Positions 1,510 to 63,957 of a stretch of 64,000 nucleotides of DNA are shown piece after piece. The DNA comes from Undaria pinnatifida. Its lineage: Eukaryota; Sar; Phaeophyceae; Laminariales; Alariaceae. The DNA lies in NCBI GenBank assembly GCA_012845835.1, contig JABAKD010000017.1, forward strand, positions 9,665,942-9,729,941, written 5' to 3'. A program made the translations under genes and the position numbers. Under the pieces are notes generated by a model. It was not told the DNA's origin. It did not search any database and saw nothing but the letters and a program-made list of their open reading frames with translations. Positions within the stretch are counted from its first letter, which is position 1. Each line of letters opens with the position of its first letter.

Positions 1510-3768
1510 TTATCTACGATGCCAACACCACGCCTTCCCCCCGCCCCCTCCTGCTACAATGACCCCCCCCCCTCCCCCACCCCCTTTTCGCTCCAATTGG
1601 CCTCCACCCCGTGGGAGGGCGACATCCCTGCTACTTTCGAAACCCTCTGCTGTTTCTCCCTCTCCACCTTCTTTTGGGGGGGCAATATCCCTGCTATTTT
1701 CAAAACTCTCTGCATTTTCTCCCACGGTTGGTACGCTCCTCCCCCATCGCCACGGCCACAACATTCCGAGAAACAATCGCCCTTGGTTGGTGCCGGTGCC
1801 GCGAGGCACTTGAGCGGCGGTATCTGTATAACCATCACCGCCGCTGCTATCGGTTTCGTTAGATCTACCGGGGGGGATGGTGCGATGTAGCCCCGCTTTT
1901 CGCTCGGCTTCCTGGCGGGAAGCGATTGCTTCTAACTCTGCTAGACGATTGTTGATTGCCTGTCTCGAGAAGGGAAGGGGCGGGGAAGGAAACGTTGTAT
2001 CGGAAAAATGAACAAATTTCATGACACAGGAACATGACGCTCGTTATTGACGGTCACCGGATTGGTTAATTGGTTGATTGGAAGGCTGTATGATTAGTTG
2101 GTGGATTCGTTGGCTTGTTGATTTGGTTGATTGATTGCTTGAAGTGCTGCTAGCTCCGTCAGTTGACCGTTGATGGCCCGTCTCGAGAGGGGGAGGGGAT
2201 TGGGGAGATGCTGTGGCATTGACAGGTTGACAGGTTCGTTGATAGGTTGATTGCTTGGTAGGTTGGTCGGTTGGCGATTTTATAGGTTGGTTGGTTTGCT
2301 GTAGAAGAAGAGCAGGGAGGTAAAGAGGCGTTGTACAAATAATACTGGTTGGTTGGGAGTCGTTTTACGGTAGCCCCCCCAACTTTTCTTTCACGAAATC
2401 GCCTGTTTCAAAACCAACTCTCGGCCGTATCTCCTGAAATACGGTGTCCCGCGACACCCTCCCCGACGTCATCGATCGATAGGCCTTTGCGCTCAAGAAA
2501 ATATATGGATACTTTGTTTTCAATTGCATCCTTCCTTGTGTCGAGCAGCCATGAAACGTCCTTGAAAGAAAATCGCTGGTTTTGAGGGGAGCTATCGCAG
2601 AAGAAGTCTTGGATGGTTGGTCGATGAGTTGATTAGTTCGTTGATTGATCGCTCGGTTGGTTGATTGCTGGAAGTGATGGCGTGAAGCTCCGCGAGCCGA
2701 TGGTTGACGGCCTGGAGAGAGAGGAGGGGGGTGGGGGGGGCGGGTAAGGATACGTTGTAGCGAACAAAAAAACAAGTTCATAGCAACGTTCAACATTATC
2801 ATCACGACTCACAGTCACTGGACTGGTTGAAGAATTATTGGGTTGATTGGTTGATCGTTTGGTGGATTGAATGGTTGGTTGAGTGAATGAAGCGATGGCT
2901 TCTAGCTCCGCCAGCCGATGGTTGATAGTCTGTCACGAGAGCGGGGCGGACGCCCATTCGAAACTGAAACATACACCCCATACTAACCCCAAGTAAAACT
3001 CCCAAAACGTGGGGCATGTTCTAAACGGGGTGGTTAGTGGATTGAGTTCTTGATTGATTGGTTAACAGGTGTATTAAACGGGTTATAGCTTGACCACGAC
3101 CACTGCTATCGGTGTGTTTGGGTTTGCCGGGGGCATCGGTGCGTTTAAGTATCGCTTTTCGCTCGGCTTCCTGGAGGGAAACGATTGCCCCTAGCCTCGC
3201 CAGCCGATTTTTGATGCCCTGTTGAGAGAGAGGGGGGGGTGTTGTGGCGTTGTGGTGTTGGTTGGTTGGTTGATTGGTTGGTTGGTTGGTTGGGTGCATG
3301 GTGGCTTGACTGGTTGATTGGTGGGCTGTAATCATAACCTTAGGCCTACAGGAAAAAAAAAGGATCACGAACAAGAACAGGCGTACGGCATAACCTCCTC
3401 CCTCCCCACCTCATCTCTATAACTACGAGAGCACAAACTCCGCACGCGCGATCGATGTCTCATGTTGCAAAAATGAGTTTCCACGAAATTATGGAGCTCA
3501 CAGATGACTCGTACGTTTTGCTTTTTATGAAAACAGAAACAACAACACGGACAGACGGAAAGGTGACGCAACACCCCCGTAGCCACCTAAGCCTATAGGA
3601 GCATACCGATAATATGCAAAACTAACAAGCACAAGCATATGGCAACGGCGGCACAAACACTCACCTTAAACGCTGCCGCCAGCTGTTGTTGCTCCGATTT
3701 TTTCTTTGCCCTAGACACGGCCTCTTTCGCCTCTTTGTCGCGCGCGCTCGAAATATACTCCCAGACCA
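1510..3768 (-). CDS. Unidentified coiled-coil protein, 3' end of gene (two exons seen)
   Basis: Two minus-strand exons fit together in phase. Exon A (3768-3665) follows an acceptor ending GTGCAG and ends at the donor AAG/gtgagt. It encodes a charged helix containing VWEYISSARDKEAKEAVSRA and then a short Q/A stretch. Exon B (1959-1510) follows the acceptor CGAGACAG and begins AINNRLAELEAIASRQEAER, continuing the helix. It then runs into a low-complexity, glycine-rich tail up to a stop at 1510-1512. Heptad-like spacing of A/L/I suggests a coiled coil; no catalytic motif is visible and I do not recognise the family. Exons upstream of 3768 were not found: the region holds minisatellite and a retrotransposon, so the 5' end may be far away, lost, or disrupted. 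Both exons have several decayed copies in the adjoining intron. Confidence 0.5.
2040..3310. repeat. Exon-echo array of coiled-coil exon B with TTGG/TTGA minisatellite
   Basis: The intron between the two coiled-coil exons holds four degraded copies of the front of exon B, read on the minus strand at about 2190-2125, 2735-2655, 2945-2880 and 3225-3090. Each begins next to a CTCTC..CAG-type acceptor and encodes a variant of INxRLAELxAI. The copy near 3225-3090 is the longest and tracks exon B for about 130 bases. The spaces between copies are a degenerate minisatellite of GGTT and GATT units (2040-2345, 2610-2670, 2820-2890, 3020-3080, 3255-3330). Confidence 0.8.
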
Positions 3769-4834
3769 CTGCACAATTCGGTTTGAATTCGGTTTATAAT
3801 TGGGATTCGGTCTCAGTTTCAGTTTCAGCGTCACTTTCGTTTTCGATGTCACTTTTAGTTCTCGTTTCAGCGTTGGTGTCAGATTTGAGTTAATATTCGG
3901 TTTTCAGTTTCACTTCCAGCTCCGATACTGGATCTTGTTCGAGGCGATTGCCTTAGGCATGGCCTCCTTTCATTTATTTTCCCCGTGCGCTTGAAAAATA
4001 CTCCCAGACCGCTGGATACTTCGATTTAAATTCGGTTTCGAACTTTTTGCTTTACTCTGATTTTCAGTTTCGGTTTCAATTTCGGGTTCAGTTTTGATAT
4101 CGGACTACGGTTAGGATTCGGTTTCAGTTTCGATATCGAACTAAGGTTCAGAGACGGTTCCGGTTTCGGTTTCAGTATCAATTTCGACATCGGATCCGGT
4201 TCTGGGTTCGTCTATTCTTGGCCTTCGATACAGCCTCCTTCACCTTTTTCTCTCGTGCGCTTGAAAGATACTCCCAAACCGATGCATATTCTGTTTCGAT
4301 CCGCATTCGAATTCGCATTCGGTTGAAGCCTCAGCTTCAGCTTCAGTCTCGACTTCAATTTAGATACCAGATTTGCGGATTTCGGTTTAGATTTGGTTTC
4401 AGTTTCGACATCGGGGTTCGGTTTATATTCGGTGTCGGCTTCAGGCTCAATTTCGATCTCGAATTCGGTTCAATATTCGGTTTCAGATTCAGTTTCGGTT
4501 TCAAAATCGACATCGGATTCGGTTCCAGATTCGTGTTTTCGTTGCCCTGGATACGACCTCCTTCGCTTCCTTCTCTTGCGTGCTTGAAAGGAAATCCAAG
4601 ACACTGCACGGTCCGGTTTGGATTCGGGCTCGGGTCAGTTTCAAGTTCAGTTTCAGGTTCGGTTGCGGTTTTATTGTCGATATCGGATTTGACTCTACAT
4701 TCGGTTTTGGCTGCATCTTCAATTTCGGTAGTTTGATTCGGTTCCAGATTTGGGTCCAGATTCGGTAGTTCTATTCTGTTTTCAGAGTTGGTTACGGTTT
4801 TGGTTCGGTTCGGTTCCAGTTTCAGTTTCAGTGT
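3769..4834. repeat. TTTCRG hexamer minisatellite with three echoes of coiled-coil exon A
   Basis: The stretch is a long degenerate hexanucleotide array (consensus close to TTTCGG/TTTCAG). It is interrupted at about 3952-4013, 4219-4283 and 4537-4600 by copies of exon A, each read on the minus strand and each keeping the segment equivalent to S-S-A-R-E-K. This gives a higher-order unit of roughly 240-320 bases, exon copy plus hexamer spacer. The array resumes at 8448 on the far side of the retrotransposon, so the element inserted into it. Confidence 0.85.
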
Positions 4835-9547: not shown

Positions 9548-10112
9548 TCAAGCGAGGAGACCCAGCAAAACGTTTTCACCTCCACCGCATATTCCGTACT
9601 CGTCGGAATTAGTGTAGCGCTCGCCAGTGATCACGATTTCTGAATCCAATTTCTTTCCGTAGCGTCCCTCAAAACGCGAGCCTAATGTTCGTATTCCTAA
9701 TAGCATCTTATTCGTAGGCATATAGTGGACTCACTCAGCGAGATGCCGAGCGAGTAAACGAAGCCTTCCGCCAGAAGGTCTCCTCCTGCGCGCACTGCCT
9801 TGTCCTCCTCCAGAGGCTTGATCTGCAACGTCACACCAGACACGCGTTGTTAACGTCATGCAACGCACAATGCGTTGTTAAGGCCAAAAAGCCTCTGTTA
9901 GCCCTTGTACAGCCGCAAAAATATCCCACACGTGCGAGGTTTCATCTGTAAAGTTACGCCAGACACGCGTCATTCAAAGCAACACGCAATGTTAAGGCCA
10001 ATGAACCCTAACCCTAACCCTAACAACAACAACAACCACCACAATAACTACAACAACAACAACAGCAACAACAACAACAACAACGCCTACACCACCACCA
10101 CCACCACCAACC

Positions 10113-14456: not shown

Positions 14457-16790
14457 TCAACTTTGCTTCCGAAGGAGCATGCAGGCTTGCTTGGACTCTT
14501 CCTCCTCAGCGGAGGTACCCAGCACCTTGCACTCTTGTTTTTTGTCGATGATCTTGTGGATCTGTCCACAAACGTTGAAGCATGGCGGGAGGACGTCGAT
14601 AAGTATGTGTAAAAAAGTATTCGTACTTCTCTCCAGCAGACGTCGTAACCATCCAAATTATTGGAGCTCCTTTCGTTGTTAGTAATTGTTGTGGTATTGT
14701 TGTACTTGCTCTTGGTACTCGGAAAAAGAGCCGCACTTCATAGACTATATCCGCACGCCATCCCCTAGTCTTGAGCAAGAGACATGGATGTTTCGACTCG
14801 TGACACATAGGGCGCAAGATAAGAGTAGAACGTACCTCGATGTCGAACGCCCTCGTGGCACCGTGGAAATGGAATGCGGGATGTATATCGAGCAAGTGGT
14901 CGCCTGCCTTCTTCAGGAGGTCACCGACCTTGATGTCGCCGGTGAACTTCGTGTTTATGTCCTCGCCGACTTGGCGGCCCTCGGCGGCTGCTTCGCAGGG
15001 CTTCTGCAAACGACAACAACGGATGGGAATACCTTGCGGTCAGTGAATGTTCAAAATAGTAAGGCCACGTAGCTGTCGTCGATTTCCAAAGTTTGAAAGG
15101 AAGTCGTACAATTTAACACTGCTGTTGTAATGAAGGCGGTCGTTTATGGGCAAAGCCCTGCCTGGTACCACAACGTTGCTAACACCTATGAAACCACCAC
15201 TGGGACAGGAACGAACGGGATTCACAGTCGCAACTGGTAAGCGTAAGCCCCGGTATACTGCTATATAAGGCCTACCGGCGGAATACCGACAACGAAGGGT
15301 AAGAGACAGTACCTGCTGTATATATTGTTCGGTACTACTCTATTACTGCTGCTATCAACACTATTACGACCGACGTGTACTGCGATTCCTGAAGAGGTTG
15401 CGCACCCTACTTGTACTCGTTAATATAAAGAGTTAATGTGGTTGTATGAAAAATGAGTAACAACAGTAGTAGTACACCGCGTCACTACATGAACAACTCG
15501 CTAACCCCAATCACGGGACTGCTCTCCAGCATCACCCAGGTTAACTTCAGCTTCTGTTTACTGCTATATATCAACCTCCAGTGTGTACTGCGACTGGTGC
15601 TGAGGTATCATGCTGCTGTGTTATTCATCACTGCATGGACCACTTTTACAACCCTGGCTGACCCTCGTGATGAGACTTGCCCGTTTTCATTGCGTCTTAC
15701 ATGTATAGATACCACGTAGTCGTAGTCTTACATCCAAAACGTTGTTTATATCACAGCACAAAGCGTCACTGCATGGACCACTTGTCCAACCCCCGCTTAC
15801 CCCGATGACGGGACTGCCCCGTACTCGTAGTCGTACATACATGAAGTGTGTTTGGCTGTACGTATGAAAAAGAAATCGCATCACACAGCGTCACTGATAG
15901 GTCTACTCGTAGACCTGAGTACTTGCACAATTCCCGCTTATACCTCGATGACATGACTGCCCCGTACACGTACTCGTGCATGCAAAAGTGTGTTTGTATG
16001 CATGAAAAAGAAATCACAGCACACAACTGCGTAGACAACTAGTACAACATGCTTACCCCGACGACGGGACTGCCCTCCGTGACCACCAAGGCGAACTTGA
16101 GTTTGTTCAGGCTACGCGTCCCCAAGCACAGCTTCCACACCGTGTGGTAGTTCGACCACGCTGGTGTAGCACACACATGCTACAGCAGACGTTGCAGACA
16201 GGCACACAAGGTCAAACAATGTAAATTTCAATGTGCATCATTATTGGAAACAGGATTCGCTTGAGTTCACCAACACCCAAAACCACATACATGCATACTG
16301 GTAGTCTATTGCGCACAACATGCAGCACACAACTCTCAACATCATCAGTAGTATAGTAGCTGACAGCAAACATCAAATTCCAACAACACGAAGAAATGAA
16401 ACTCACGTTTCGTCAAGCTCTCAGCTCCTTCGTTAGGGACGCCGATCGAAGGTGAATCACAGGTGTCCGCGTCACACCAGTCACCCACACGAGGGTTGTC
16501 GCCGCTTCCCAAGTGCTTCTTGTTAAGGTTACATGAAAAGCTTGGCACGTGGAAGGCTCGTCACTCCTGCAGGTGTCGCAGACAGCGTCCTGGGAACTCC
16601 TGTTTTTCCTATTTCGTGCGATGAGGAAACCGTCACAACCCTTGCTCGGGCACGGCCAGTCAGGATTGCCAGAAGAAGCTGAGTCCCGTTCTTGCCCGAC
16701 CAGCTTCCACACGCCTGATCCTGAACCTCCACCACCCCCACTGCTGTTGGCGGAGCCTCCTCCCGCACTAGCCTTGGTCCGCTTCGCAAA
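14457..16790 (-). CDS. Unidentified protein, possible RanBP2-type zinc finger at N-terminus
   Basis: The 3' half is well supported. Exon 16160-16057 includes TVWKLCLGTRSLNKLKFALV and SPVVG and ends at donor GGG/gtaagc. Exon 15003-14836 starts KPCEAAAEGRQVGEDINTKF and ends DIE/gtacgt. The last exon, 14561-14457, runs from IHKIIDKKQECKVLG to a stop. These join in phase, and exon 16160-16057 also joins in phase to a donor at 16407 (AAAC/gtgagt). Upstream of that, 16548-16407 includes GDWCDADTCDSP. 16790-16550 includes DWPCPSKGC and VCDTC, a C-x4-C ... C-x2-C pattern that resembles a RanBP2 finger with a long middle. These two parts are in different frames, and their junction is not resolved. I do not recognise the rest of the protein. 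Copies of the exon at 16057 lie downstream in the intron. Confidence 0.5.
15490..15980. repeat. Three echoes of the 16057-16160 exon end plus donor
   Basis: On the minus strand, segments near 15550-15496, 15825-15795 and 15975-15945 repeat the exon end that encodes SPVVG, with the following splice donor region (plus-strand form CCCCGATGACGGGACTGCC or close). The longest also repeats the preceding K-L-K-x-x-x-V part. Confidence 0.7.
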
Positions 16791-24613: not shown

Positions 24614-24650
<37 letters not shown>

Positions 24651-49000: not shown

Positions 49001-51353
49001 CCATCCCCACCCCTTCTTTTCTGCCCGCCCCTCCCCAACTATGCCATACGACTACGGCCATGCACAAACTGAGTGCCCTCACCCCCACCGCTCACCCCGT
49101 CCCCTTCCCCTGTGCCTCAGGGATGGTGACGCAGCTAGGCGGCTGGAGCTACGCTCGCACTGTGTTGTCGAACGTCAACAAGGATAGCGGAGATGGGGGA
49201 TCGGGAGGTGATATGTGGACAACCTTGAAAAGCTTATACAGTAGTACACGACACCCTTTCCTAACGGACAAAAACACAAACATTTTTTTCTTGTAAGCAT
49301 TATTTGTGTGTGTTTGTAAGCAGTTTGTCCCCTGAAACGTGTATTGAGCTATAAAGTGGTTGAGGGCGTGCGTTACCGCCTGGGTTGGTGAATTGGAACT
49401 TGGTGCTATTATTCGTAGCTTGCGCGATTGCGTACTTTTTCGGTGGTTGATGGAGTAGTGTTTCCGACTTGGCCACCCGTTACCAGTACCGTTACTATTG
49501 CCGCTACCGCCATCGTTACCATTTACGGTTACCATCGTCATCATTAACGCTACCGGTACTAATACCGTTATGGCCATCGTTACCGTCATTGTTCCCATTT
49601 ACCGTTACCACCATCGCCATAATTAGCGCTACCGGTACCGTTATCGTTACCGTTACGACTACCGCTACCGCTACCGTTACTGTTACTGTTACGGTCAACA
49701 CCGCCATCGTTGCACTTAACGCCACCGCCACCGGTAACATTACCTCTACCATTACGTCTACCACTACCCCTACCGCTATCGTTGCCGTTACCGCTACCAG
49801 TACTACTACACTTTTCGCCACCGTTACCACTACCGTCACCGTTACCTCTACCGTTACCTCTATCCTTACCGTTGTTGTCAAGGTTACCGCCATCATTACC
49901 GTTACCGTCACCATTACCGTTACCGTCACCTTACCCTTACCTCCGCCCTTGCCTCTTCCCTTGCGACTACCACGTCCTTTTCCGTTATTACTGTTACCAT
50001 TGCCATTAACGTTGCCATAACTCAGCCGACGCCAACGGCAACCAGGCAGGCGCATCAACCCCAGCAGCAAGCCACCACAGTCAACGTCATTCAGGAGGGG
50101 ACGGCAACGGCCACGCAGGTGCCCAGGGGGATAGCTCCAGCGCTAAGAAAGGGGGTTCCAAGAGCGGAGGGGTGAGGTTAGGTGGAGGTGGAGGCGGTGG
50201 AGGAGGGGGGGGAGAAGACGGTGGGGATGATAAGGATGGTGACGGGGAGGACGAGGAGGAGGAGGGGTTCTATGCCGCCGCTGATTCGTGGGACCTCGAT
50301 TCGCACCACTCGGACGAGGGTGTGCTGGGCGGTTTTTCAGAGGAAGAGGTGCGTGAATGCTTGTTGGTGCTTCGAGTGCGTTGTGTTTTTGTCTCCGCAG
50401 CACCCGCTCTTTACGTACGGCTACCCCGCTTTCCAACATTCATCCGCCCTCAAGCATTACCCGCCAACCAACCCCCCCCCTCCCCGTCCTTCGCAAATTC
50501 GCTCGCTCTCCCTTCACATCGACCCGCTGTTCAACATTCGCTTGCCGTTCGAAACTCATCGACCAATGAATAAATAGCATTCCGCCGCCATTGGATAAAT
50601 CACCCGCAAATCGGCGTTCATCCGCTGTTGCGTCACTCACCCGCAAACGAACATTATGCTGCCCATGAACGCTTTCAGAACCGGGTTCACGGTGGTGGGA
50701 ATATCCTCGTACTTCCAATTTGTGTGGAATAGTGATTGCAGTTCTTATCGGGTTGGAGCAAAAATAGTTGAAATTCGTGCGTAATACTTAGTGCAGTTCT
50801 ATACTGGTTGGGGAGCAACTACTCGGAATTTGTGTGGAATATTTGTTGCCGTTTTAGACGGGTTGGGGAAAAATATTTGGAATTGGTGTGGATTGTTTCG
50901 TGCAGTTAAGAAGGGAGAACCCTATCACTGCCGGAGAATTTCCCACGCCAATCCTAGTTATCCCCCCCCTCAAAAAATGTGGGAATACGTAAGGGGATGG
51001 CGTTCATGCCTTCCATTTTCCACCCTCCTTTGGTTATCCACAGGCCTGTCAACATAGTTTTCGAGGTTCACCCGCTGATCAACACTAAGCCGCTATTTAA
51101 GATTCAGGCTCTTTCAACTTTTCGTTCGCCCTTCGTTGTTCGCCCTCCGGTGAACATGTATACCAACTCACACCCGCCATTGAACGTGGACCCGCCCTTA
51201 AAAGTTCACTCCGGCCAAACTTGGACTCGCCCGGAAGTATTCACAGACGAATGGACACGAATTTCACCAGCCGATCAACTTTCTCCAGCCATCATTTTTT
51301 TGCCATCTCATTTATTGTCCTCGCCCTCTTACTCTCGCCCTCCCTCTCAGTAC

Positions 51354-51400
<47 letters not shown>

Positions 51401-51401
51401 C

Positions 51402-51436
<35 letters not shown>

Positions 51437-54400
51437 TAACTCAGATCCGGGGTCATACAGCGGGCCCTCCTCCCGCCTCCCCGCTACGGTATGTGTCTTC
51501 ATTTTTTGTCGCGAGGAGAACCAGGATTTTTTTCCCTCGTCGACTCGCGTCGATTTGTACCTACCCACGCTGCTAGGCGCTCTCAGAAGTTGGTCCTTTT
51601 TTGTGTTTGTTGCATTTTTGCAAATAAGGTCAAAATCTCACCACGGTGGTAATCGAACTCAAGGACCAACGCCAGTGTTAATATGTATTCGAGGGCCATC
51701 ACTAGACCACCAGGGCGACCAATACTGAGTCATAGGTACCGTAATTCAACGTGAAACTCGTCCTTTTTAAGTTCACGCCCTCCAAATTTGACCCTCCCTT
51801 CACTGGTCACCGGCTAATCAGCGCAAGGTTCGATTTGTACTCGCCAATCAACCAAGCCCAGCAATTGATGTTTATTGTTAATGCAGCATTATCCCTTTAG
51901 CGCTGTACCCACGTTTCTTTTGGGCAATTCTACTTCGAATTGGACATGTGGTTGTTTGTTTTGCTCTGAGTTTTATCCTGTGACCCGATATTTGCCCGAT
52001 ATTTGCCTGCAAATGCGGCATTAACCCGGACGTTTACCCCGAAATGGCCGTTATCCCGTGAGTCAACATTAATACACCAATCAACACGATCGGCGTTATC
52101 CCGTATTTCAGCTTTTCCCCGCCAGTCAGGGGGAGTTCGAGGTAGTGCGTGGTGGAGACGTGTGCGCGCGGAGGATTTGGAGTCCTAACGTGGTGCACGC
52201 TACCGCCACCACCGACATCGACTGTCCCAGCAACCAATATTTATATTTACACGTACGGTCGAAGTATCACGCGCACCTTGCAAAGAAGAATCTTGATTAA
52301 TATTTTGATCTCACAGCTGTAGTGTAATTTTCATATTGTCTAGTTTAGTGTTTCCAAATTGAAGATTATCCCGTGATTCAATCCTCCCCAAAATTCGACT
52401 TTTAACTTCAAATACGACATAACCCGCAATTTCGACATTATTTCGCAAAGTTCTACATTTTCCCCCACCGACCAGGAGAAAATCGAGGTAGTGCGCGACG
52501 GAGACGTATGCGAGCGCAAGCCTGTCTAAATAGTGGTGCACGCTACCACCGCTACCGACATGGACTAACAGGGCAATCATTAGCGTGTTTGCGAGGCGTG
52601 TTTGCGAGATGCCAACCATAGGAGTTGGGTAGGAGTTGGGTAAGAAAACTTATTATCCTATTAATAGTATTGAAACGGTCGAACGTCACAATCCATCCAA
52701 GGCTAAGCCAACCCACGAAAAATCAGCGAACAACTAGGTTAGAAATGTGTTTTCCTACCTCTTTTTTTTTTTGTAACCTTTTTTTTTTTCTTCGTGGGTT
52801 GTTTGGCCGTGGGTTACGACGTTCGTCGCTTCCAACACTATTGTTGTAATTTTTCCAACCCAAAGTAAATTTGGCAAGCCCAAACACCGTACAACATCAG
52901 TCATACAGTCATGTTCAATTCCCTGGTATAACGTAATTTAATGTTATCCCGAAAAATCGGCACTGACCCGCAATTTCAACTTTCACCCGTAAAAGACAAA
53001 ATGGACTAAAGAATTCGACATTGACGCCCCTAGTCAAAGCTAATTGGTAAATTCGACAACGTTGGTCCGCAAATTCGACATTAAGCCGCAAATTCGGTGT
53101 CATCCCGCAAATCCCGAAGTCGATGTCAACCCGCATTCGATGCCATCCTCTTATTCCCAAAATCGATGTAATCCCGCAATTCTACATTATCCCGCCAATC
53201 AGGAGGAGTTCGAGGTGGTGTGTGACGGAGACGTATGCGAGCGGAAGCCTGTGGGCCCTAAATTAGTGCACGCTGCCACCACTGCCGACATCGACACCGT
53301 CGGTGCTGGTGCTGATGCTGCTCCTGCTTCTCCTGTTGCTGCCGGAGCTGCTGCTGCTGTTACAGCGGATAATGGGGAGAGCGGCGAGGGAGGAAGCAGC
53401 GACAGCGGCGATTCTATCGCTACCGACAACGCGAGGAAGGATGAGGAGGAGGATGGGTTTCCTGGACTCTCAGACGAGAAGGCGGCGGAGGGGGCGGAGG
53501 ATGGGGGCGGCGTGGTGGCGGAGCAAGAGGAGGATCCTGGCCTTGCTCAATTGGTGAACAGTTAATGAACGTTTTGATTTTAGGTCTTTTTCAGGGTTTT
53601 CCCAACAGCTTGTTTTTTCATACTTGAGAGCATTTATTTAGTAGATACTATTAATAGATACACTTGTTTGACACCCAGTGGGTGATACCTGTTGTGTATT
53701 GTAATGTGGATGCATAAAAACGACAAACTATTTTTGCTCATGCAGTCGTTGCGTCTTGACACCCTGGACGTATGGTGACCTGGCACCGTATACCAGGCAT
53801 ATCATAGCATGCGACACCTTTACCCTGCCGTAGCTCTCTCTGTGTGGTGCCTTTTAATTTTACGTTTGCTGTATAGAATGAAGGTAATGACAAGTGAAAG
53901 TAAACGGAGGGGAACGAAAAGTGACACGAAACGAAACAAAACGTGAAACAACGAGAAACAATACATGATGATGAAACGGTTTCGTCCTTTCGGCCAGCTT
54001 TCTATGAGATAGGAGGCCGGACGGGTCTGCCTAACCCTGAATCCTTGCACTAAACCTCTACACAACAAAAAATAAACGGAAAAAAAACGAAAAGAAACAA
54101 AGCCAACCGAAACGAACGAAACTTGAAACGCATATTGAAATGAAAATTGAAACGAGTAGAAACAAGGAGAAACGGACAGAAACGAAAAGAACCGACACAT
54201 GAAACGGTTTCGTCTTTTCTGCCAGGTTGCTATGGGATGGGAGGCCGACGAGGCTGCGGTAGCGCTTGCGGAAGCGGGAGGGGACGTGGTTACTGCTGCG
54301 GAGGCCCTTGCTGAAAGGGAGGAGGAGGACCTAGAAAGGTAACGCTGGAACCTGTTGTTGTTGTTGTTGTTGCTGTTGTTGTGTAGACAGGTTCCAATAA

Positions 54401-55121
54401 TGCTCGAGTCGAAGAGTACATCCCAGGCAAAATAAAACACAATAATGCACCTAGCTGGAGGTAAACCGCATGCCTTAGACAGGTAATGTGAACTCAGTTT
54501 TTAGTGTAAGTTCGTAATACAGTAGTATGACAGTAGTGTGATACGAAGTATTAATAGTATGATACGAAGCATCAGTAGTATGATGTATCCTGGTGCATAC
54601 TACTGTAGGTATTTTGTACTGGTTCTACTGGTTCTACTGTTTGTACTTTTTGCGCCAGGTACGCGTTATATATGGGAAGATATGCAATAGACACAGCCAT
54701 GTGTTCGTTGTCCCGTTAATGGCTGAGGGCGCCAGCTCTTCGGAGGCGAAGAGATTGAGGGTGTGGACTAGGCTGTAAGCTGTAGGCTGTATGTAAACGA
54801 AGTACTGTGTCGTTTTCGCGTACCGTGGTTTTCTTTTTTTCGATATATTATCACAAATTGAAATACACTCCAGCTGTGAGATCGAAGATTTTGTTGAAAT
54901 TCATCGTTGCAAGCTGTGTGTGATACTCCTACCGCCCGTATTACTGGGTGACGGGTTGTGTGTCCTCATTAAGGATAGAGGTCGGCGACGCCCCTTAGGA
55001 CTACAGTGTAGCTTTGTGCCAGGGTCAACTTCGGGTCAACAGCGAGATATACATGTGGCGATCGTGACGATGACGAAAGCGGTGGTAATGTTGGTGGTGG
55101 TGGTGATGATGATGATTATGG

Positions 55122-55157
<36 letters not shown>

Positions 55158-58100
55158 GATGATGACGATGATAGTGATGATGATGATGATGATGATGGTG
55201 ATGATGACAATGATGATGACGATGATGATGAGGATGATTATGAGGATGTTGACGATGGTAACGATATCTACGGTGACTGTAATGGCAGGTACAAAGAGGG
55301 GCTAGCTGACCTGCAACAACGAGGGTGGGACGAGGAGGTGGCAATGTCAGCAATGCGCGAGGCAGCGGGCAACAGTACGGCGGCCTTGCTCGCGCTGGAG
55401 GAGGAAGACAGGTGAACTTGGTGACTCGGATCTATGTTTATTTGTTCCAATCCAAATATTGCATTCACTCATTGCATTTATTCTGACTTCCATTCAGTTC
55501 ACTCCTTTCTTCATATGCATTTCGTCGGAATCCTTGGCAGAATGCTGTGGGAGCAGTTTGACTACGGTATAGAACATCTTGGGGATGGTGGATCATAACT
55601 GAGACGGGGAGGTAGCCCGGAAAGCTTCGCTGATGCAGTTTGATCCGCTTTATTAACTGCATCCATTGCGTTCATATCGTCAAATGATTAACACTTCTGT
55701 CATTTTTATCTTGCACCGCTCTCCTTTTTTATTATTTGTCGGCAGGATGCTGTCGGAGCAATTCGACCAGAGCGTCTTTGAGATGGTGGAGCATGGCTGG
55801 GACGAAGAGGTGGCCCGGAAGGCTCTGCTGATGCAATGGCAAAAGGACATCGAGGGGAAGGGAGGCAGTCGCAAGGCGCAGAAGCAGTTCGAGAAAACCG
55901 TACAGGTATAGCATAGGAGACGGGGAAAACAGTTGATCGTGTTATTTTAATACGACAATGACATTCGATAATCATTCGATAGCGACCGTCACAAACAAAT
56001 TCGCCTTTGACAACGAGTGTAATTTTTTTTACGAGATCGACATTCGATGGCAACAGTGACACCAGTATTCGATGACAACAATGGCAACTTTTTTAAATTC
56101 GCCTTTGACAACGAATGTCATTTTTTTCACGAGAACGACATTCGATGGCAACAGTGACACCAGTATTCGATGACAACAATGGCAACCATTTTTTTTTTAA
56201 CGCTTGCTTCAAAGATAGCGACGTGCGATATCGACCACGATACCGACATCCGGCACTGATTTCTCTCCAGCACGCCGTGAAGCCGTGGGGCGCGATAGCG
56301 ATGACATCATTCCTTGACGATATATCCACAACAATATCCGATACTCGATATCAATGACGATAACGATATTCGATGAGGATAAAGATAACGATATTCAATG
56401 ACAACACCGATAACAGTATTCGATCACGACAACGGTAACGATGTCGACTGTCGATGATGGTGTCACTCCGAAGTCCGGACTTGGCACGGAGTGAAAACGG
56501 TGGGTACTGAATAGGGCAAGGGCAGTGGCGGGAGGCGGAACACTCGCCGCCCACTCTTATAGCGATAGCGATAGCGATGTTCGATGGTGACAAGCGATAA
56601 CGATGTAGACTTTTCGCTGCTGATGCCCCTCTGAACTTGGCCGCCCCCCACTCCGACAAACACAGCCCAAACGATACTGATGCTCGATGGCGACAGCGGT
56701 TTTACGGTAGCGATATCGACGTTCGATCATGATTTCGCTCCGATCTGGACAGGGAGTGAAAGCGCAAGGCAAGAAAGAGGGTAAGGATAATGCGGTGAAA
56801 GGGGGTTCAAGCAGTGGTAAGCAGGACAAGAAAAAGGACGAGCCTCCAGCCCCCACCCCGGCGAAGCGCGAAGATGTGGTGTTCGACGTCACGGACAAGA
56901 CGCTGCAGAAGGTCGGTGAACGATTACACCTGTTTTTGTATCGGTTTCGCTTGCGGAAGGGGGGGGGGGGGCGGGGGTCGATTTTGTCCCCCCTTCCCCG
57001 CCCGTTGGGTGACGTTGCATTTTAGAGACTTTTGAAGTCGTGTTGGTGTTGTGAGGTGTCGCGTGATGTTGCTTGGTGGAGCTCGGTGGCGCTTGATATC
57101 GCTTGGTCGTTTACGTTTTTGCTGTTGTGCGCGCTATGAATTGAATTTTTGCTCCTTCGGTGTTTTGTTTTTTTCTCTCTTTTACTTGTGGTTGTCAGAC
57201 CCTGACGCTCTTTACAACGTTTTCCCCACCTTTTTTCTGTTCATTGTTGATTTGACTTTGTTGGCAGGTGGTGCTCGAATCTCCAGTCCCGGTTATCCTT
57301 GATGTCTACGCCGAGTGGTGCGGTCCCTGCAAGCAGCTCACGCCGGCGCTCGAAGAGGTAAATGCCTTCGTCTAACTTGTAGTTTTTTTTCTGGGGCCGG
57401 ATGCTGTTCGTAGCACAAGCCAGTGTTTTGCGAAGCCTCACGATTTCGGGCGGCCACGGACACGTTCGCGTCAATCGTTGAAAACGTCGATCAAGTCTAT
57501 CAGCAGTCTCACAAGAGGGACAGTATTGCTATCTGGGGATAATGACTGTTTTAGACCATAAGCAAGTCCGAGAAATTCAGTGACGATCGCACTTGGGTCA
57601 TGCGGTTTTGTAGATCCCTTGAGGGGCTTCGATGGTCCAGTGGCCGCAGAAATGTGGTTGTTCCTCAAGTCGGGTCGCTGTAAGGATGCCGTCGATTGTG
57701 CGTACTTCTGTGGCAAAACTCTTACTTTTTTTTTCAAGAGGAAGTTGGTCATTGGGTCTTCCGGCAAGCACGAAAACTGACAGTTTTTTTTTTCAATTTT
57801 TTTTTTTTTTTAGAAAGTCTCATGTACTCCCTTAACCAATCAAGACACCAGCCTATGAACCAAATGAATAGCTAGTCAATCAACCTATCAATCAACCTAT
57901 CAATCAACCAATCAACCACTCATTTGATTAACCAACCAATCAACCAGTCCATAGATTGATTTACTAACCGGCCAAGTTTACCCAACCAACTACCCCATCA
58001 ACTACCCCACCAGCCAACCAATGTAAATACAAGACCACGCACCACGAACCAATCAATCAACAGATCAATCACTCACTCAACCGATCAAACACCTATTCAA

Positions 58101-61100
58101 CCAGCAGTCCAATTAACCAACCAATCCATCAATAAATTAAGCACTCAACGAACAAACAAAAAACAACTACGCACTACATAACCGCCCAACTAAGCAACCA
58201 ACGAACTGACGCCAATAAAAAACAAACGACACAACATGGTGAACCCAGGCGGCGATGCGATCGGGAGGCATGTTCCGGGTTGCCAAAGTGGATGCCGACA
58301 AGCAGCGAAGCCTCGTGGAGGTGCTCGGTGTTGCGGCGTTCCCCTCCATCTTTGGCCTCAAGAACGGCATCATCATCGACAACTTTGTTGGTATTCTTCC
58401 GCAAGATGAGGTGAGAGTTCCTGCGATATTTCCGCAGTATTACCGTAGAATTACCGTGAGATTCATTTCCGGTTACCAGAGTATTGCCACCATGACACCG
58501 CAGGGTTACTGTAGGTTATGCCCAACTAGTATTGCGTTCCATTCCATCGCCGGCCTCAAGAAGGACATGATCGTTCACAAGTTTGTCAGCATTCTTTCGC
58601 AGGATGAAGTAGCAGTTACGACGGTATGACGGCAAGGTTCACGCGGTATTTCCGAAGTAGTACCGCAGCAATGCAATCGGGTTACCGTGGGGTAACGGTA
58701 GAGTTACCGTGGGGTTAAATTAGGGTTCCCGTGGAGTTGCTTGGGGCTACGGCGTTCCCCTCCATCTTCGGCCTCAAGAACGGCATCAACGTCACCTTTT
58801 CGGTTTTTCTCCGCAGGATGGTGTGGGAATTACCACGGTATTACCTCAAGATTACCGTGGTATCACCGAATTATCACGGCAGTACCTGATATTACGGCGG
58901 GGTTACAGTGGAATGACCACAGTGTTACCGTAAGGTTGCTGCAGCGTTAACTAGTGTCGCATTCCCCTCTATCTTGGGATTCAAGAACGGCATCATCGTC
59001 GAATAACGTTGTCATTTCTCCGCAGGATGAGGTGGGTTTTTTCGCTGGTACTTTTGTTTGCGTTCAATGACGCTGTCGCTTTTGTTGCGATGCCATTGTT
59101 TTGAAGCTGTTTTTTTTCGTGATGAATAACTTTTCCGTTTGTTTCGTAGTCCGTTCATATGCAGCCGTTCATTATGGGCGTGATACTGGAAGAACTGCCG
59201 CCCGGCAAGGAAAAGAGCTGACAGAGCTGCTTTGCTATTGTAACAGAACATACTTTTTGTTTTGACGTCATTGTTGAGAATCTGGTTTTTTTAATGTGTG
59301 TGTTTTTCACACTCCGTTCAGATGCAATCGTTCATGATGGGCGTAATCATGGGGCTGCCGCCAAGCAAAGACAAGGAACTGAGGGAGCACCAGAGGGGAC
59401 AGGTCGAGCTGAGGGGAATGAGCCGGAAACTGGCGCACGTGGCCGGTGCGTTTCGATGTTTTTGTTTTTCATGCGAGTTGCTGCTACTAAGTGCACCGAC
59501 TTTTTGGCAAAGCTCTTAGGAGACAGCTTTTTCGCGGGGCGCGTCAAGGCCTATAACAGGTATCACTGTGGACGTAAATATAGCGGCCGATTGGGTATTC
59601 ATATGAAATCAAAACGTTCGTTATATTTCCGTCCAGATTGGTACCATTTTTCACATTTCATTGTAGGGAAGCGGTCAATCAAGCAGCCAACCCGCGGTTT
59701 CCTAGCGCCCCCCCCCCCCACCCTGCCCCTTCTGGCATCGTCTCTACCGCTTAGACCTGACTGTGCTCAGTGTTCCCGAATTATTTCCCTCTCCCCGTGT
59801 TTTCTCGTTGGCATTAGGTATACCGCTCAGCCTGCCTGTGGTTGCTTTTCATTGAGCGCGGAGGGCGATGTCTGCCTGGTCGGTGAAAACCTGACATGCT
59901 CCGTCGCAGCATTGTAGGGAGCGACGGTCATACCATATGGTAATAGCTACTACACCATATTCTCACGACTACTGCTATGCCTGAAATGAATTCACCTCCC
60001 GTCCCCCTTCCTTGTCCTTGTTCCCTCTCGCGTCAATCGTACCGCTTAGGCCTGGCTGTTCTTGGTTCCCGCAAGAAGGAAAACCTGTGTCTTAAGGTGG
60101 ACAAGGCTCTCGGTGGGATGCTGCCCGATCTTCCTGACGGGAGACCTGCGGCAGACGACGCTGTCGCCGTGGTCAACGCTAAGAAGGCCGCTAGGACGGT
60201 GGTCACCGTCCTCATGTCCGCCTACAAGTTTCCTGAGGTAACGAAAGGGGCATTATTGATCGATGATACATACCACTGCTGTCGTGCGTTGTGTTGCTTG
60301 ATAAGTGTGTGATCGCTATTCGATTATATGTATTGATTGTATTGCTTTCTGCATTGAAGCCATGAAACGTGCTGGTAGCTGGGACGCGTTTGTGCTTGGT
60401 GTGATGCCCAACGCGGAGCATGCGGCTAGGAATGCGGTCATCTTCCTCATGGCCGCCTATAAGTTTCCTGAGGTAAATTTGACGAAAGGGGTGGGCTTGC
60501 GCTAGCGTTGGTTGGCCTTTGCGGCAGGTGAACCAGACGGAAGGGATGGTATCTTCGTTTTTTTGTGGCATTCGCTGATGACTTTTTTTTTTTTTTTTTT
60601 TTTTAGATCCTCCTGGGGATCCGGGTAAAAAAAGCTTAAGCTCCATACACTTTCGTTTGTGTACCAGTTTTCGTCCATCTGCAGAACGCAGCGCTGCTGT
60701 CTTTTGTGAAGCTTTGAGACGTATTTTTGGAATGATAACCCAGTTCAACACTAATAAGGCCGCTAAGACGGTGGCTGCCGTCCTCGTGTCCGCCTACAAG
60801 CTCAGTTTTATTCGGCATTTATCATAAAGTTTCTTTCGAGGCCTTTGACTGGAAAAGGGCTCTTCCGGACCAAAATTCGAAAAACTTGGTCTTTCGTAGG
60901 TTCTTGTGCTGGTTCGGGTCCGATATATAACCCATGAAAGGAGTACCTCGTTGACTGAGTGAAATAATGCCGTTAAAAATGCCGATACTTTTCGTTTTTT
61001 TTTCCGGTATTTCCTTTCGGTAGTTCCTTTTGGTATTGTCGATATTCTCTCGGTATTCTTGGCTATTGAGCATTCTTCATTTGTATCGCTCGACTCCGGC

Positions 61101-63957
61101 GAAGGCAGGGGTAACAGCGTTATTGGATCGTATTAATTATGATATTGTGCGTGTTCCAAGGCATTTTAGGCGGGTTAGTGGTAAACGATGACGTTGTACC
61201 GCAACTATTAAGGCCGACTTGGCGGGATTGAGGCCACCATGAGACTTTTCTTATCCGAAAATTGACATGCAGATATGATAGCTCCGTAGCCAACGCCAAG
61301 AAGGTCACTTGGACGGTGGTGACCGCGATCAATGCCACCTGCAAGTTTCCTTAGGCGATTCCAACGAAAGGGGGTGGTAACCTCACTATTGGAGTACTGG
61401 TGACTGTGCTCGTGTCCGACACAACCGTCATGTGGCCGCTGCCTACAAACGTTCACACCTTGGGCAGATCAGATCCCCGTTGATGATCTGTACATGATCT
61501 GTGTCTTTCAGGGAAGACAGATCCCTGGTCTACACGATCTGCATGGCCTACAGATCATGTTGCCGGGTGGGAGACAGATGATCTGAATGTTCTACCACGT
61601 GTTTTCTGGATTAGATTTGTACTATATGTGCAAATCCTGCAAAACATACCATGACGACATATATCGGATCTGTATGATATGTATGATCTAGATAATGATC
61701 TGTATGATCTGTATGATCTAGAAGATGATCTGTTCGATGTGAGCAAACTTTTCGATACGGTATCGAACTCTTAGACCGGTGACAATGAAAGGCCAAAAGT
61801 TTTAAATCCCCGAAGATCCCAACCAAATTTGCGCGAACGGTCGCCTATGGGCCCAATTTTGTAGTTCATTTTTTGGAGCTTTCCAATTTTCCGGAATGTG
61901 ATTTCTTGCAGCGACCTTGGCCAACATCTGCTTATTCTCAAGCAAATATTGGATTTGACGCGGCTTGACTTCGTGTTCTCCAAACACTTCGTTCGACGAG
62001 ATCAACGACACGTCGTGAACGTGGCGAGCTCGTTAGGGGCTCCGACCCCCCTTTGGTGTCCAGCGCTCGCTCTTCGGCGGGTGATTTGTGGCGGGCGCTG
62101 ATCAAGCTTCTGTTAAAAACACATTTGGCGGCTGGTGTGCAGAAAACTGAGACAAAAAATTCTATCGTCTCTCAACGGGGAAAAAACAGAGCTTTGGGAG
62201 GATTTGACGGAAGACCACAGGACAACACTAGCAACCTCTCACGCCCTGGGGCATGGATCGAGATGAACTCTTCAGCGCTGTCACTTACACTCATGTGACT
62301 TCGTCTGGAACGAAGAGGAGTGACCATGGGTTGTCTCTATCTCGAGATCGAAGGTCAATCGTGTTTAGTGGACAACGTTGATCAATGTTTGACGAAAAAT
62401 TGACGAATATACCCATTGGGCCGCATGACCAAGACAAGAGCCAGAAAAAATATTTTAATCGGAATGTTTTGGCAAATAACCCCCCTAAATAGTTTGGAAT
62501 TTTTTAGCGACACTATGGGCTTTCCGTTTGCATCGGTCTTACTGCTGTGCTATCTCATGCGCGTGAACAGGACCCCAAGTTCCGGAAATTGTCAACTTCT
62601 AGCAAGGTCTACGAGGAGGTACTGTCGACGCATCCTCCGATGCTGGAAGTCCTAAGGCTCGCTGGTTTCAGGCAAAAGGAAGGGGACGAGAGTCACTTAC
62701 ATCTCATGCACAGGTGCTGTTGTGCAGGATATGATCACCCAATAGAGGAGAGTTGATACCAGACAAAACGTGTATAACCTGGCGACCCGCAGCCCCGGGG
62801 GGACAGATCCGACCCATAACCGACGCCGACTGTCGACTGACAGACGACCGATGAAGAACTGGCCGACCCGCAGCCACGGGGAGACTGCTCCCGACAGACC
62901 ACAGACCGCGGGGAGACCGCTTGACCACGGCCTGACTGCTGTGCGCGATGATCTCAGAGCAAGTAGCAGTATCCGTTTTACCATCAAGACGTAAAACCCA
63001 AATGATAGGAAACCCGGGGATGTATCCCGAGTGTCCTTTGACGACCACCAGTATCATAGGCGCGATACCAATGGTGCAGAGGTCGAAGTATATTACGTTC
63101 AATAGGTTCTCGGGCTATCTTACGAATGCCTTCTTTTCGGGTGTAAATGATTCAGTAGTGCAGTAAGTACGGTAGTTCAGTAGATGCAGTATGTGCTTAC
63201 GGAAGAGGTTATGACGTATTGTGAGACGCATCCTCCGATGCCGGAACATCGAAGGCTCGCTGGTTTCAGGCTAAACGAAGGGGACGACGGTCACCTTACC
63301 CTCTTGCACAGGCACAAAGCCAAATCATGTCACCGCATAGATCTGATTGGCCAAGCTTGTTCCGTGCGTGCAAGACACACTCTTGAACATGGCGGACACT
63401 GCAGTACGTTTCGACATAGAGCTCAACAGCAAGATTGGGCAGCTGTGAATTCGCCAGAATTGGCCGTTGCTAGGGTGTTTGCAATGTACCAACGTTGGTT
63501 GGGTTAGGGGAAAGAAGCATATTATACTATATTAATAGTATTGAAACCGTCAAACATGACAGTCGAAGGCCAACCCAACCCACGAAAACATCACAGTCAA
63601 AGGCCAACCCACGAAGCACGTTTTCCTACCAGTTTGTTGTTTTCTGACGTATGTTTTTCGTGGGTTGGTTGACCTTGGGTTGTATGGCACTCATCGGTTC
63701 CATTTCCATTTCCATTTTTTTTCATTTTTTTTCATTCTTTTCAACCCAACAACGATTGCTAATCGCAAACACCCCACTCATCGTGACTATTGCCGTTAAA
63801 ATAGCGTTACAAGTGCGGTTTCAAATGTCGTTACAAACGTTGCGGCGCATGCTGTTGTTTGCGAGCAGGAACATGGCGGTGCTGGCCTCTGTTCAGGACA
63901 GGGTGGAAGTGTGGAACAGGAGCGTCAAGATGCCTGAGGTCGAGGATGATGGCATGG
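46086..63957 (+). CDS. Predicted plastid-complex-targeted UBA-thioredoxin-PUB protein, incomplete at right edge
   Basis: Sixteen phase-consistent exons: 46086-46177, 48243-48338, 48702-48814, 49121-49207, 50026-50348, 53203-53553, 54226-54338, 55289-55411, 55746-55905, 56753-56911, 57268-57357, 58249-58410, 59322-59445, 60050-60237, 62571-62713, 63869-63957; about 804 residues so far. Residues 1-20 ([20 protein letters not shown]) read as a signal peptide with a transit-type SGF junction, then an R/S/T-rich stretch. A Gly/acidic linker follows. UBA-like repeats start near residue 350 ([56 protein letters not shown]). Thioredoxin has WCGPCK at 556-561 and [15 protein letters not shown] spans exons 14-15 ([39 protein letters not shown]). 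PUB binds Cdc48/p97 and UBA binds ubiquitin in known proteins. Exon 16 ends at a GTGAGT donor. Confidence 0.82.
48457..48560 (+). repeat. 22-bp tandem repeat
   Basis: Four to five units of ACTACAAAACCCGATACTGT-CGG type lie in the intron before exon 3 of the PUB-domain gene. Confidence 0.9.
49465..50015. repeat. TACCGT hexamer array in PUB-gene intron 4
   Basis: This is a degenerate ACCGTT/ACCGCT hexanucleotide array of about 550 bases, ending ten bases before the acceptor at 50025. Long open frames on both strands are artefacts. Confidence 0.9.
51352..51722 (-). mobile_element. tRNA-derived SINE with CTA tail
   Basis: Read on the minus strand: a tRNA-like head at 51722-51630 with an A-box-like TGGTCTAGTGATGG and a B-box-like GAGTTCGATTACC about 40 bases on. 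A body at 51600-51440 is shared with 29125-29510 and 19415-19560 (GCGCCTAGCAGCGTGGGTAG). A (CTA)n tail follows (51435-51352). It lies in a PUB-gene intron in antisense. Confidence 0.7.
52115..52590 (+). repeat. Two echoes of PUB-gene exon 6 (53203)
   Basis: 52125-52235 and 52481-52575 repeat the exon start from the CAG acceptor (variants of GAGGAGTTCGAGGTGGTG.G.GACGGAGACG) through GTGCACGCTACCACC. Flanking intron sequence (ATTATCCCG and TTTTCCCC.CC.ATCAGG) is repeated with them. Only the third unit, at 53203, stays open. Confidence 0.88.
52620..52870. mobile_element. MITE-like element, TATTAATAGTATTGAAAC family
   Basis: It shares TATTAATAGTATTGAAAC, CCAACCCACGAAAA and its inverted TTCGTGGGTTG with 63492-63754, and more distantly with 44050-44700. 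The internal inverted repeat around a T-rich loop would fold into a hairpin. Confidence 0.7.
52900..53200 (+). repeat. AATTCGACATTAACCCGCA minisatellite before PUB-gene exon 6
   Basis: Imperfect units of about 20-26 bases (CCCGCAAATTCGACATTA) run up to the acceptor at 53202. Similar units occur before the echoes (51970-52110, 52350-52460), so exon and minisatellite were duplicated together. Confidence 0.8.
53975..54040 (+). repeat. Echo of UBA exon 7 with its acceptor
   Basis: GAAACGGTTTCGTCCTTTCGGCCAG..TCTATGAGATAGGAGGCCGG repeats 54202-54250, the intron end plus exon start. It is surrounded by AAACGAAA-type repeats. Confidence 0.8.
55080..55280. repeat. GAT/GTG microsatellite
   Basis: This is a near-continuous GAT/GAC triplet tract ending at the acceptor of UBA exon 8. 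Confidence 0.95.
55535..55635 (+). repeat. Echo of UBA exon 9
   Basis: GGCAGAATGCTGTGGGAGCAGTTTGAC ... GAGGTAGCCCGGAAAGCTTCGCTGATGCAG tracks the real exon at 55746-55840 for about 90 bases but is not open. Confidence 0.88.
55906..56752 (+). repeat. GATATTCGATGAC minisatellite with an echo of exon 10
   Basis: Units of GATAACGATATTCGATGACAAC type fill the intron, including an 80-bp duplication (56050-56090 and 56117-56185). 56465-56500 (CACTCCGAAGTCCGGACTTGG-CACGGAGTGAAAACGG) echoes the acceptor and start of exon 10 at 56735-56775. Confidence 0.7.
57358..58248. repeat. CAATCAACC minisatellite in PUB-gene intron 11
   Basis: 57835-58210 is a degenerate array of CAATCAACCAACC units, the complement of the motif in the coiled-coil gene intron at 2.0-3.3 kb. 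57358-57830 is unremarkable apart from T-runs. Confidence 0.85.
58525..59035 (+). repeat. Three echoes of the thioredoxin exon (58249-58410)
   Basis: 58530-58615, 58738-58830 and 58955-59033 repeat the part encoding [20 protein letters not shown] through the donor GCAGGATGAGGTG. The first still reads as [20 protein letters not shown]. Spacers are ATTACCGTGGGGTTACCG-type repeats, also found after the real donor. Confidence 0.92.
59145..59225 (+). repeat. Echo of PUB-gene exon 13
   Basis: TCCGTTCATATGCAGCCGTTCATTATGGGCGTGAT repeats the acceptor and start of exon 13 at 59314-59350, followed by a diverged CCGCCCGGCAAGGAAAAGAG. Confidence 0.88.
59740..59855 (+). repeat. Two upstream echoes of exon 14 front
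   Basis: TACCGCTTAGACCTGACTGT (59747) and TACCGCTCAGCCTGCCTGTG (59821) match the acceptor and start of exon 14 (60040-60062). Each lies in a repeated block with CCC-rich sequence and TTCTGG or TTTTCTCG. Confidence 0.8.
60355..61360 (+). repeat. Three downstream echoes of exon 14 back half
   Basis: 60375-60480 (reads [18 protein letters not shown]), 60748-60803 ([16 protein letters not shown]) and 61290-61356 ([14 protein letters not shown]) copy the exon 14 end that forms the first PUB helix. The first two keep the reading frame for the whole helix. Confidence 0.9.
61480..61765. repeat. GATCTGTATGATC satellite
   Basis: Degenerate GATCTGTATGATC/CAGATCATG units occur here. The same motif occurs at 27040-27070, 36240-36330 and 36590-36830. 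Confidence 0.75.
61774..62450 (-). mobile_element. Truncated relative of the 21.4-kb PIF/Harbinger-like MITE
   Basis: It begins with TTA and GACCGGTGACAATGAAAGGC and then follows the complement of 22210-21530 of the first copy (shared blocks near GGGCCCAATTTTGTAG, GGTGATTTGTGGCGGGCGCTG and ATCTCGAGATCGAAGGTCAATCG). The far inverted repeat is missing. It lies in PUB-gene intron 14. Confidence 0.85.
63175..63320 (+). repeat. Echo of the PUB exon 15
   Basis: 63205-63312 repeats the back of exon 15: ACGCATCCTCCGATGC.GGAA, GGCTCGCTGGTTTCAGGC, GGGGACGA, CTCTTGCACAGG. The frame stays open from 63184, so this is a plausible cryptic exon. Confidence 0.9.
63492..63754. mobile_element. MITE, CGTTGGTTGGGTT ends
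   Basis: The left end AACGTTGGTTGGGTT and the right end CAACCCAACAACG are inverted. The interior has TATTAATAGTATTGAAAC and a pair of inverted CCAACCCACGAA/TTCGTGGGTTGG blocks. It is related to 52620-52870. Confidence 0.75.

What the first reader, a model, noticed from the sequence alone, without database searches (positions are those of the whole stretch)
1510..63957. Exon echoes: introns packed with decayed partial copies of the neighbouring exon
In all five host genes, introns contain diverged copies of the adjacent exon's front (with its acceptor) or back (with its donor), separated by minisatellite. Examples include coiled-coil exons (2125-3225 and 3952-4600), OPA3 exon 3 (9945), the 16057 exon (15496-15975), and PRORP exons 4, 8, 9, 13 and 14. 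In the PUB-domain gene, exons 6, 7, 9, 10, 12, 13, 14 and 15 are affected. Copies span exon-intron borders and often carry the flanking minisatellite, pointing to repeated local tandem duplication of short genomic units, not retroposition. Decay of different degrees suggests an ongoing process. The result is dozens of decoy splice sites and cryptic exons. I know of no described system in which this is the rule across unrelated neighbouring genes.
Basis: seen in the sequence. Interest (0 to 1): 0.95.

Follow-up and report, generated by a model that had tools for sequence, protein, structure and literature searches.

The report
Introns carrying copies of exon edges
In this kelp genome many introns contain old, decayed copies of the edge of the neighbouring exon, most likely left by small side-by-side DNA duplications that splicing ignores, a hidden way for introns to grow.

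Summary
The window is kelp-like nuclear DNA in a 511-Mb assembly. Of 28 exons set in two genes with brown-algal homologues, 9 have copies in their own adjacent introns at E<=1e-3: 19 same-strand matches against 1 low-complexity opposite-strand match. The side is strict. All 13 upstream copies start at the exon's first bases; all 9 downstream copies end at its last bases (E<=0.3). Of 22 Pfam-found exons on other contigs, 5 show the same: 11 same-strand copies, 0 opposite, all 11 on the predicted side.

Local direct duplication is about as common in introns (57/391 tiles) and in sampled genomic regions (360/2437) as at exon ends (10/53), so exons need not be targeted. The copies drift like neutral DNA.

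Best reading: general tandem duplication seen through a filter. Events across one splice junction leave the protein unchanged, so their fossils survive. Ten literature searches (listed in the report) showed no such genome-wide description, but the kind, intragenic tandem and partial exon duplication, is known. There is no evidence here for an exon-specific machine or for used decoy exons.

The parts
18860..42090 (+). PRORP (protein-only RNase P) gene, 16 exons set here
   Evidence: tblastn of Scytosiphon, Laminaria and Ectocarpus homologues; splice sites; Pfam PRORP 9.8e-19
50026..63957 (+). UBA-thioredoxin-PUB gene, 12 exons set here
   Evidence: tblastn of P0007-P0013; splice sites
20269..21059 (+). 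five copies of the front of PRORP exon 21181-21310 (four end at exon base 60 or 61) with upstream minisatellite, period 160-233
   Evidence: the copy at 21010 alone has E 0.012
26956..27046 (+). copy of the front of PRORP exon 28193-28389
   Evidence: E 8.7e-10
31232..31514 (+). two copies of the front (bases 1-73) of PRORP exon 31707-31830
   Evidence: E 6.2e-12 and 5.5e-7
32734..32775 (+). copy of the back of PRORP exon 31707-31830 with its GC donor
   Evidence: (E 5.8e-5)
37895..37919 (+). weak copy of the last 25 bases of PRORP exon 35902-36005 with GT donor
   Evidence: E 0.05
52130..52565 (+). two copies of the front (bases 1-93) of PUB-gene exon 53203-53553
   Evidence: E 2.1e-12 and 2.8e-12
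53971..54038 (+). copy of the acceptor and front of exon 54226-54338
   Evidence: (E 1.7e-10 with flank); exon part alone E 0.082
55542..55639 (+). copy of the front of exon 55746-55905
   Evidence: E 2.5e-10; spacer not homologous when tested alone
56107..56533 (+). minisatellite array holding a possible copy of the front of exon 56753-56911
   Evidence: E 8.2e-10 but 56% identity and partly simple sequence
58458..59031 (+). three copies of the back of exon 58249-58410 with donor
59159..59227 (+). copy of the front of exon 59322-59445
   Evidence: E 1.6e-5
59701..59780 (+). copy of the acceptor and front of exon 60050-60237
   Evidence: E 1.2e-4
60405..61354 (+). three copies of the back of exon 60050-60237, irregular spacing
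   Evidence: E 2.6e-9 to 7.1e-9; spacers not alike
63211..63311 (+). copy of the back of exon 62571-62713
   Evidence: E 1.1e-15
9910..10010 (-). stretch with a copy of the acceptor and front of OPA3 exon 3 (exon about 9735-9822)
   Evidence: z 14.1; OPA3 by Pfam
15480..15990 (-). four copies (two weak) of the back and donor of the exon that ends at 16057
   Evidence: z 13.8, 3.7, 10.2, 5.0; spacers
3930..4640 (-). three copies of the front of the putative coiled-coil exon about 3665-3768
   Evidence: z 18.0 to 21.2; gene itself unsupported
2110..3240 (-). four copies of the front of the putative coiled-coil exon that begins near 1959
   Evidence: z 10.2 to 27.6; gene itself unsupported

Best explanation
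Short stretches (about 100-500 bases) of this kelp genome are duplicated in tandem widely, at a rate that does not clearly single out exons. When such a duplication spans one splice junction, the result can be splice-silent. A duplicated acceptor plus exon front leaves a partial exon in the upstream intron while the inner acceptor still makes the normal exon. A duplicated exon back plus donor leaves its extra copy in the downstream intron. The protein is unchanged, so these events can fix, be re-amplified by slippage or unequal exchange into small arrays, and then decay without constraint, lengthening the intron. Duplications inside an exon, or of a whole exon, alter the protein and would mostly be removed by selection. 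Shown: local, same-strand, border-spanning copies; strict side rule; loss of coding constraint; related spacers in most arrays tested; presence in other genes of the genome. Inferred: fixation by drift, the molecular cause of the duplications, the selective filter, and that the outer splice sites are not used.
For: Same-strand excess in adjacent introns, 19 vs 1 HSPs. Side rule: 22 of 22 same-strand adjacent hits at E<=0.3 and 11 of 11 in the independent sample (relative to the ends of the Pfam match, not of verified exons); the minus-strand genes agree. Alignments continue into the intron across the junction. In 5 of 6 arrays at least one pair of spacers is related with z above 6 (mononucleotide shuffles, and simple sequence raises z). 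Several copies of one exon share an inner breakpoint (exon base 60-61 four times, 73 twice, 93 twice). Neutral decay over 22 echoes: mismatches at codon positions 1/2/3 are 118/555, 98/557, 148/549; 38 of 40 indels are not multiples of 3; 15 of 22 keep the splice dinucleotide. Exon parts are better preserved than intron parts, 1383/1816 vs 643/919, as expected if only one copy drifts in the exon part. Similar local direct-repeat rates in exon ends, introns and 20 sampled regions. A clear tandem case elsewhere: L040, offset 111 bases.
Against: Spacers of the exon 60050 array show no homology, nor does the spacer of the exon 55746 copy when tested alone (130 of 500 shuffles as good), so tandem structure is not shown there. 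Two intergenic stretches of the window have few local copies (0/60 and 3/44 tiles). The genomic rate is uneven: 71 of the 360 direct tiles lie in one region (L021), and near-inverted tiles (102/2437) are not rare, 69 of them in three regions. My counts leave room for a two- to three-fold excess at exon ends. No window echo is younger than JC 0.13, although a steady process should leave young ones that are easy to see. One near-identical local pair is not adjacent (44198-44286 and 44485-44573), so not every local copy is a simple tandem event.
Confidence: 0.83

Rival explanations
1. Exon ends are preferred targets: chromatin, R-loops or transcription-linked breaks at splice junctions make duplication start at exon borders, so exon echoing is a process of its own.
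For: Exon-end tiles with a near direct copy 10/53, against 57/391 for introns, of which 27 overlap echoes themselves; few local copies in two intergenic stretches of the window (0/60 and 3/44); echoes in all five window gene regions.
Against: Sampled genomic regions show a similar local direct-repeat rate, 360/2437. Simulation shows that exon-anchored events stay visible longer (at 0.25 substitutions per site 44% against 10% detected), which inflates the exon count.
Confidence: 0.12
2. Echoes are functional decoy or alternative exons kept to regulate splicing.
For: 15 of 22 echoes keep the splice dinucleotide; copies in L040 keep GT after the copied exon end (sequence printed).
Against: Codon positions 1 and 2 drift at 21% and 18% against 27% at position 3, and 38 of 40 indels break the frame; retention of the dinucleotide is about what drift gives.
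Confidence: 0.05
3. The copies are a dispersed repeat or transposable element that captured exon pieces, or retrocopies.
For: Dispersed repeats do occur in these introns (21504-22214 with 61770-62461; 29123-29514 with 19412 and 51459).
Against: At E<=1e-3 the nine exons have no copies outside their adjacent introns in the window; copies include intron sequence; strict local position and orientation. A whole-genome search with an echo unit did not complete.
Confidence: 0.02
4. Assembly artefact: misjoined reads or haplotypes create false local copies.
For: None seen; raw reads were not available.
Against: The 22 window copies are 70-88% identical to the exon, many with indels, far from read error, in a 68-contig assembly.
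Confidence: 0.01

Closest known systems
Tandem and partial exon duplication catalogued by Exonize (PMC12343006; passages and the Results section seen)
   Different: The passages seen do not describe the side rule or a comparison with non-exonic DNA; the table of species and numbers was not held, so no rate could be compared and I do not know whether a brown alga is included
Novel intron positions by tandem duplication in Drosophila (PMC2891723; passages seen) and in a potato RdRp gene (PMC4974935; title and abstract start in a listing only)
   Same: Local tandem duplication involving splice sites changes gene structure
   Different: Those events create new introns from duplicated exonic proto-splice sites; here existing introns hold partial exon copies
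Brown-algal exon shuffling in ROCO/LRR receptor genes (PMC11378527; passages seen, parts of the abstract among them)
   Same: Brown algae, intragenic duplication of exons
   Different: There LRR exons are shuffled, used and alternatively spliced; here partial copies decay in genes such as PRORP and tRNA synthetases
Intron and transposon survey of Ectocarpus (PMC12477816; 12 passages seen)
   Same: Long introns (median 524 bp on autosomes) of which 20.1% is TE sequence, so most intron sequence is not called TE
   Different: Tandem repeats there were called with TRF and RepeatMasker; TRF missed these exon-edge arrays in this window

Membership tests
Intragenic tandem duplication | copies local and in the same orientation | tested here: met
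Intragenic tandem duplication | copies adjacent, so the spacers are copies too | tested here: inconclusive
   related spacers in 5 of 6 arrays, not in the exon 60050 array; not shown for the single copy of exon 55746; clear in L040, offset 111 bases
Whole-exon tandem duplication | complete exon with both splice sites copied | tested here: not met
   hits are fronts or backs; nearest to whole are two copies of exon 58249 (bases 15-161 and 22-162 of 162)
Intron gain by tandem duplication | a new intron position is created | not tested
   intron positions in relatives' genes were not available; the copies lie inside introns of this genome
Dispersed repeat or transposon | copies at unlinked places | tested here: not met
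   within the window only: no hits at E<=1e-3 outside the adjacent introns for the nine exons; whole-genome DNA search of an echo unit unanswered
Retrocopy | copies lack intron sequence | tested here: not met
   alignments cross into introns
Minisatellite as called by Tandem Repeats Finder | array detected at the echo period | tested here: not met
   for the six arrays, one search lists only 12-25-base periods inside the 20220-21240 array, one 22-base period in the 58249 array, and none at an echo period
Alternatively spliced exon | used in mRNA | not testable with these tools
   no RNA data; coding constraint absent

The most novel reading that the evidence does not exclude
Splice-silent border duplication is a main engine of intron growth in brown algae. 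Much of the intron DNA that passes for unique is decayed tandem copies of each intron's own edges, and exon conservation reveals events too old for intron-only comparison. In extreme cases the spans of these units make up most of an intron, as in PRORP intron 20144-21180 and intron 58411-59321 (spans, with spacer homology only partly shown).
Probability: 0.35. Interest if true: 0.8.

Novelty: new variant of a known kind. Interest (0 to 1): 0.6.

Why it matters
How introns become long is often explained by transposons (general knowledge). Here 9 of 28 exons in the window and 5 of 22 elsewhere carry fossils of another route: small tandem duplications that splicing hides. Because the exon stays conserved, an echo can still be recognised at ages where intron-only copies mostly cannot (44% against 10% at 0.25 substitutions per site in simulation), so the rate, age and selection on local duplication become measurable. 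It also warns annotators that partial exon copies with intact splice dinucleotides could be called as exons.

Tried and rejected
Retroposition, dispersed repeats, assembly artefact and used alternative exons were considered and disfavoured (see rivals).

Intron-coverage estimates were dropped as a headline. They put 6374 or 5946 of 32,399 intron bases, and up to 100% of single introns, into echo arrays. But gapped BLAST ran through spacers that are not homologous when tested alone (intron 55412-55745: 130 of 500 shuffles as good), and some chained arrays are simple sequence. Real exon-intron pairs had coverage in 14 of 26 introns, swapped introns in 11 of 104 pairs (5.7% of bases), shuffled introns in none.

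Searches for kelp DNA in viral contigs and genome contigs found nothing usable. An attempt to read an exon excess from simulation stayed inconclusive. The identity figures counted some alignments twice; one search replaces them. Two opposite-strand hits of exon 41326-42090 (E<=0.3) are from low-complexity sequence. The whole-genome requests (echo unit; PF00005; PF00443) did not complete, nor was any request for PF00271.

Full report
Identity. Proteins spliced from the window match brown algae. For PRORP, Laminaria digitata P0002 is 96% identical over 41% of the query and Scytosiphon P0001 60% over all of it. For the UBA-thioredoxin-PUB gene, L. digitata P0007 is 88% identical over 77%. When the genome tool answered, the window was placed at G000:C23:9665942-9729941 in an assembly of 511,146,479 bases in 68 contigs. 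I call it kelp-like nuclear DNA; no call names the species.

Exons. tblastn of homologues and splice sites read by eye give 16 PRORP and 12 PUB-gene exons. Two PRORP introns start with GC. OPA3 is supported by Pfam. For the gene around 14.4-16.9 kb two unnamed homologues cover 14748-15225 only, so the 16057 exon itself is unconfirmed. The coiled-coil gene has no Pfam match.

Observation test. Each of the 28 exons was compared with the whole window and the hits were classified. At E<=1e-3 the adjacent introns (64.8 kb summed over exons) hold 19 same-strand hits from 9 exons and 1 opposite-strand hit from a low-complexity exon. Non-adjacent introns of the same gene (406 kb summed) hold 1 and the rest (1.32 Mb summed) holds 1. 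At looser thresholds chance and simple-sequence hits appear everywhere (E<=1).

Geometry. All 13 same-strand upstream hits at E<=0.3 begin at exon base 1-5, and all 9 downstream hits end within 7 bases of the exon end. The minus-strand genes agree, though two of the 12 pairs there are weak. That is what duplications across one junction must give if the protein is to stay unchanged. The alignments continue across the border into intron sequence. Copies of one exon often share an inner breakpoint, which suggests re-amplification of one unit. In 5 of 6 arrays spacers between copies are related; in the exon 60050 array they are not, and the spacer of the single exon 55746 copy is not recognisable.

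Decay. Over 22 echoes, mismatches at codon positions 1, 2 and 3 are 118/555, 98/557 and 148/549; 38 of 40 indels are not multiples of three; 15 of 22 keep the splice dinucleotide; JC distances run from 0.13 to 0.38. Exon parts match at 1383/1816 positions and intron parts at 643/919. This fits a copy that drifts freely beside a conserved exon.

Is it about exons? Probably not. With 80-base tiles, near same-strand copies (within 1.5 kb) are found for 10 of 53 exon-end tiles and 57 of 391 intron tiles (27 of the 57 overlap echoes), against 4 of 391 intron tiles near inverted; two intergenic stretches gave 0 of 60 and 3 of 44. In 20 regions of 10 kb that I picked at round coordinates on 12 contigs, the figures are 360 of 2437 direct and 102 of 2437 inverted, uneven between regions: 71 of the 360 lie in L021, and 69 of the 102 in L009, L016 and L024. 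Simulation shows that exon-anchored duplications stay detectable longer than intron-only ones. Exons are best seen as passengers that make old duplications visible, but a modest real excess at exon ends cannot be excluded.

Beyond the window. Pfam searches of the whole genome gave 7 exon matches for PF00587 (all used) and 57 for PF00118 (the 15 best, delivered as loci, used). None lies on the window's contig; several share a gene, and two run over a stop codon near the edge of the match. Of these 22, 5 (L032, L033, L034, L040, L043) have copies within 1.5 kb: 11 same-strand, 0 opposite, all on the predicted side of the match. Identities reach 94.2% and 89.4%, so younger events exist. In L040 the end of the match and the sequence after it recur at an offset of 111 bases. 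Among 18 ORFs that I picked by eye from a codon-score list of the sampled regions, 5 have same-strand copies in their 10-kb region and none opposite-strand; those ORFs are not verified exons.

Literature. One search, for duplicated splice sites together with intron growth, listed no paper holding 4 of its 6 terms. [quoted passage not shown] Tandem duplication is a known route to new introns (PMC2891723, passages seen). Ectocarpus introns are long and 20.1% TE (PMC12477816, passages seen). In what I saw there was no description of splice-silent exon-edge arrays in brown algae, but most subscription papers are not in this library.

Verdict. The pattern is confirmed in the window and found again in other genes of the same genome. 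The mechanism is most likely ordinary tandem duplication seen through the filter of splicing and selection. The novelty is the density, the strict side rule and the value as a record of intron growth.

Noticed in passing
4837-8442: A 257-base direct repeat pair, 86.8% identical (4837-5089 and 8187-8442), brackets about 3.1 kb with long open frames: looks like an LTR-type retroelement.
   Followed up: no
21504-22214 and 61770-62461: A dispersed element of about 700 bases, 83% identical, in opposite orientations in introns of the two genes.
   Followed up: no
44198-44286 and 44485-44573: An 89-base direct repeat, 96.6% identical, whose copies lie 198 bases apart, so a recent local copy that is not a simple tandem duplication.
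   Followed up: no
28389 and 31830: Two consecutive PRORP introns begin with GC instead of GT, and the echo at 32734-32775 keeps the GC.
   Followed up: partly
18860-63957: PRORP and the PUB/thioredoxin gene may share one contig in Scytosiphon promiscuus: P0001 and P0008 both list a longest contig of 109607 bases.
   Followed up: no
window echoes: None of the 22 window echoes is younger than JC 0.13, although young ones would be easiest to detect.
   Followed up: partly
10022-10217: The long AAC array region gives 75 matches in the genome (71-100% identity, own place included), many in tandem clusters.
   Followed up: no
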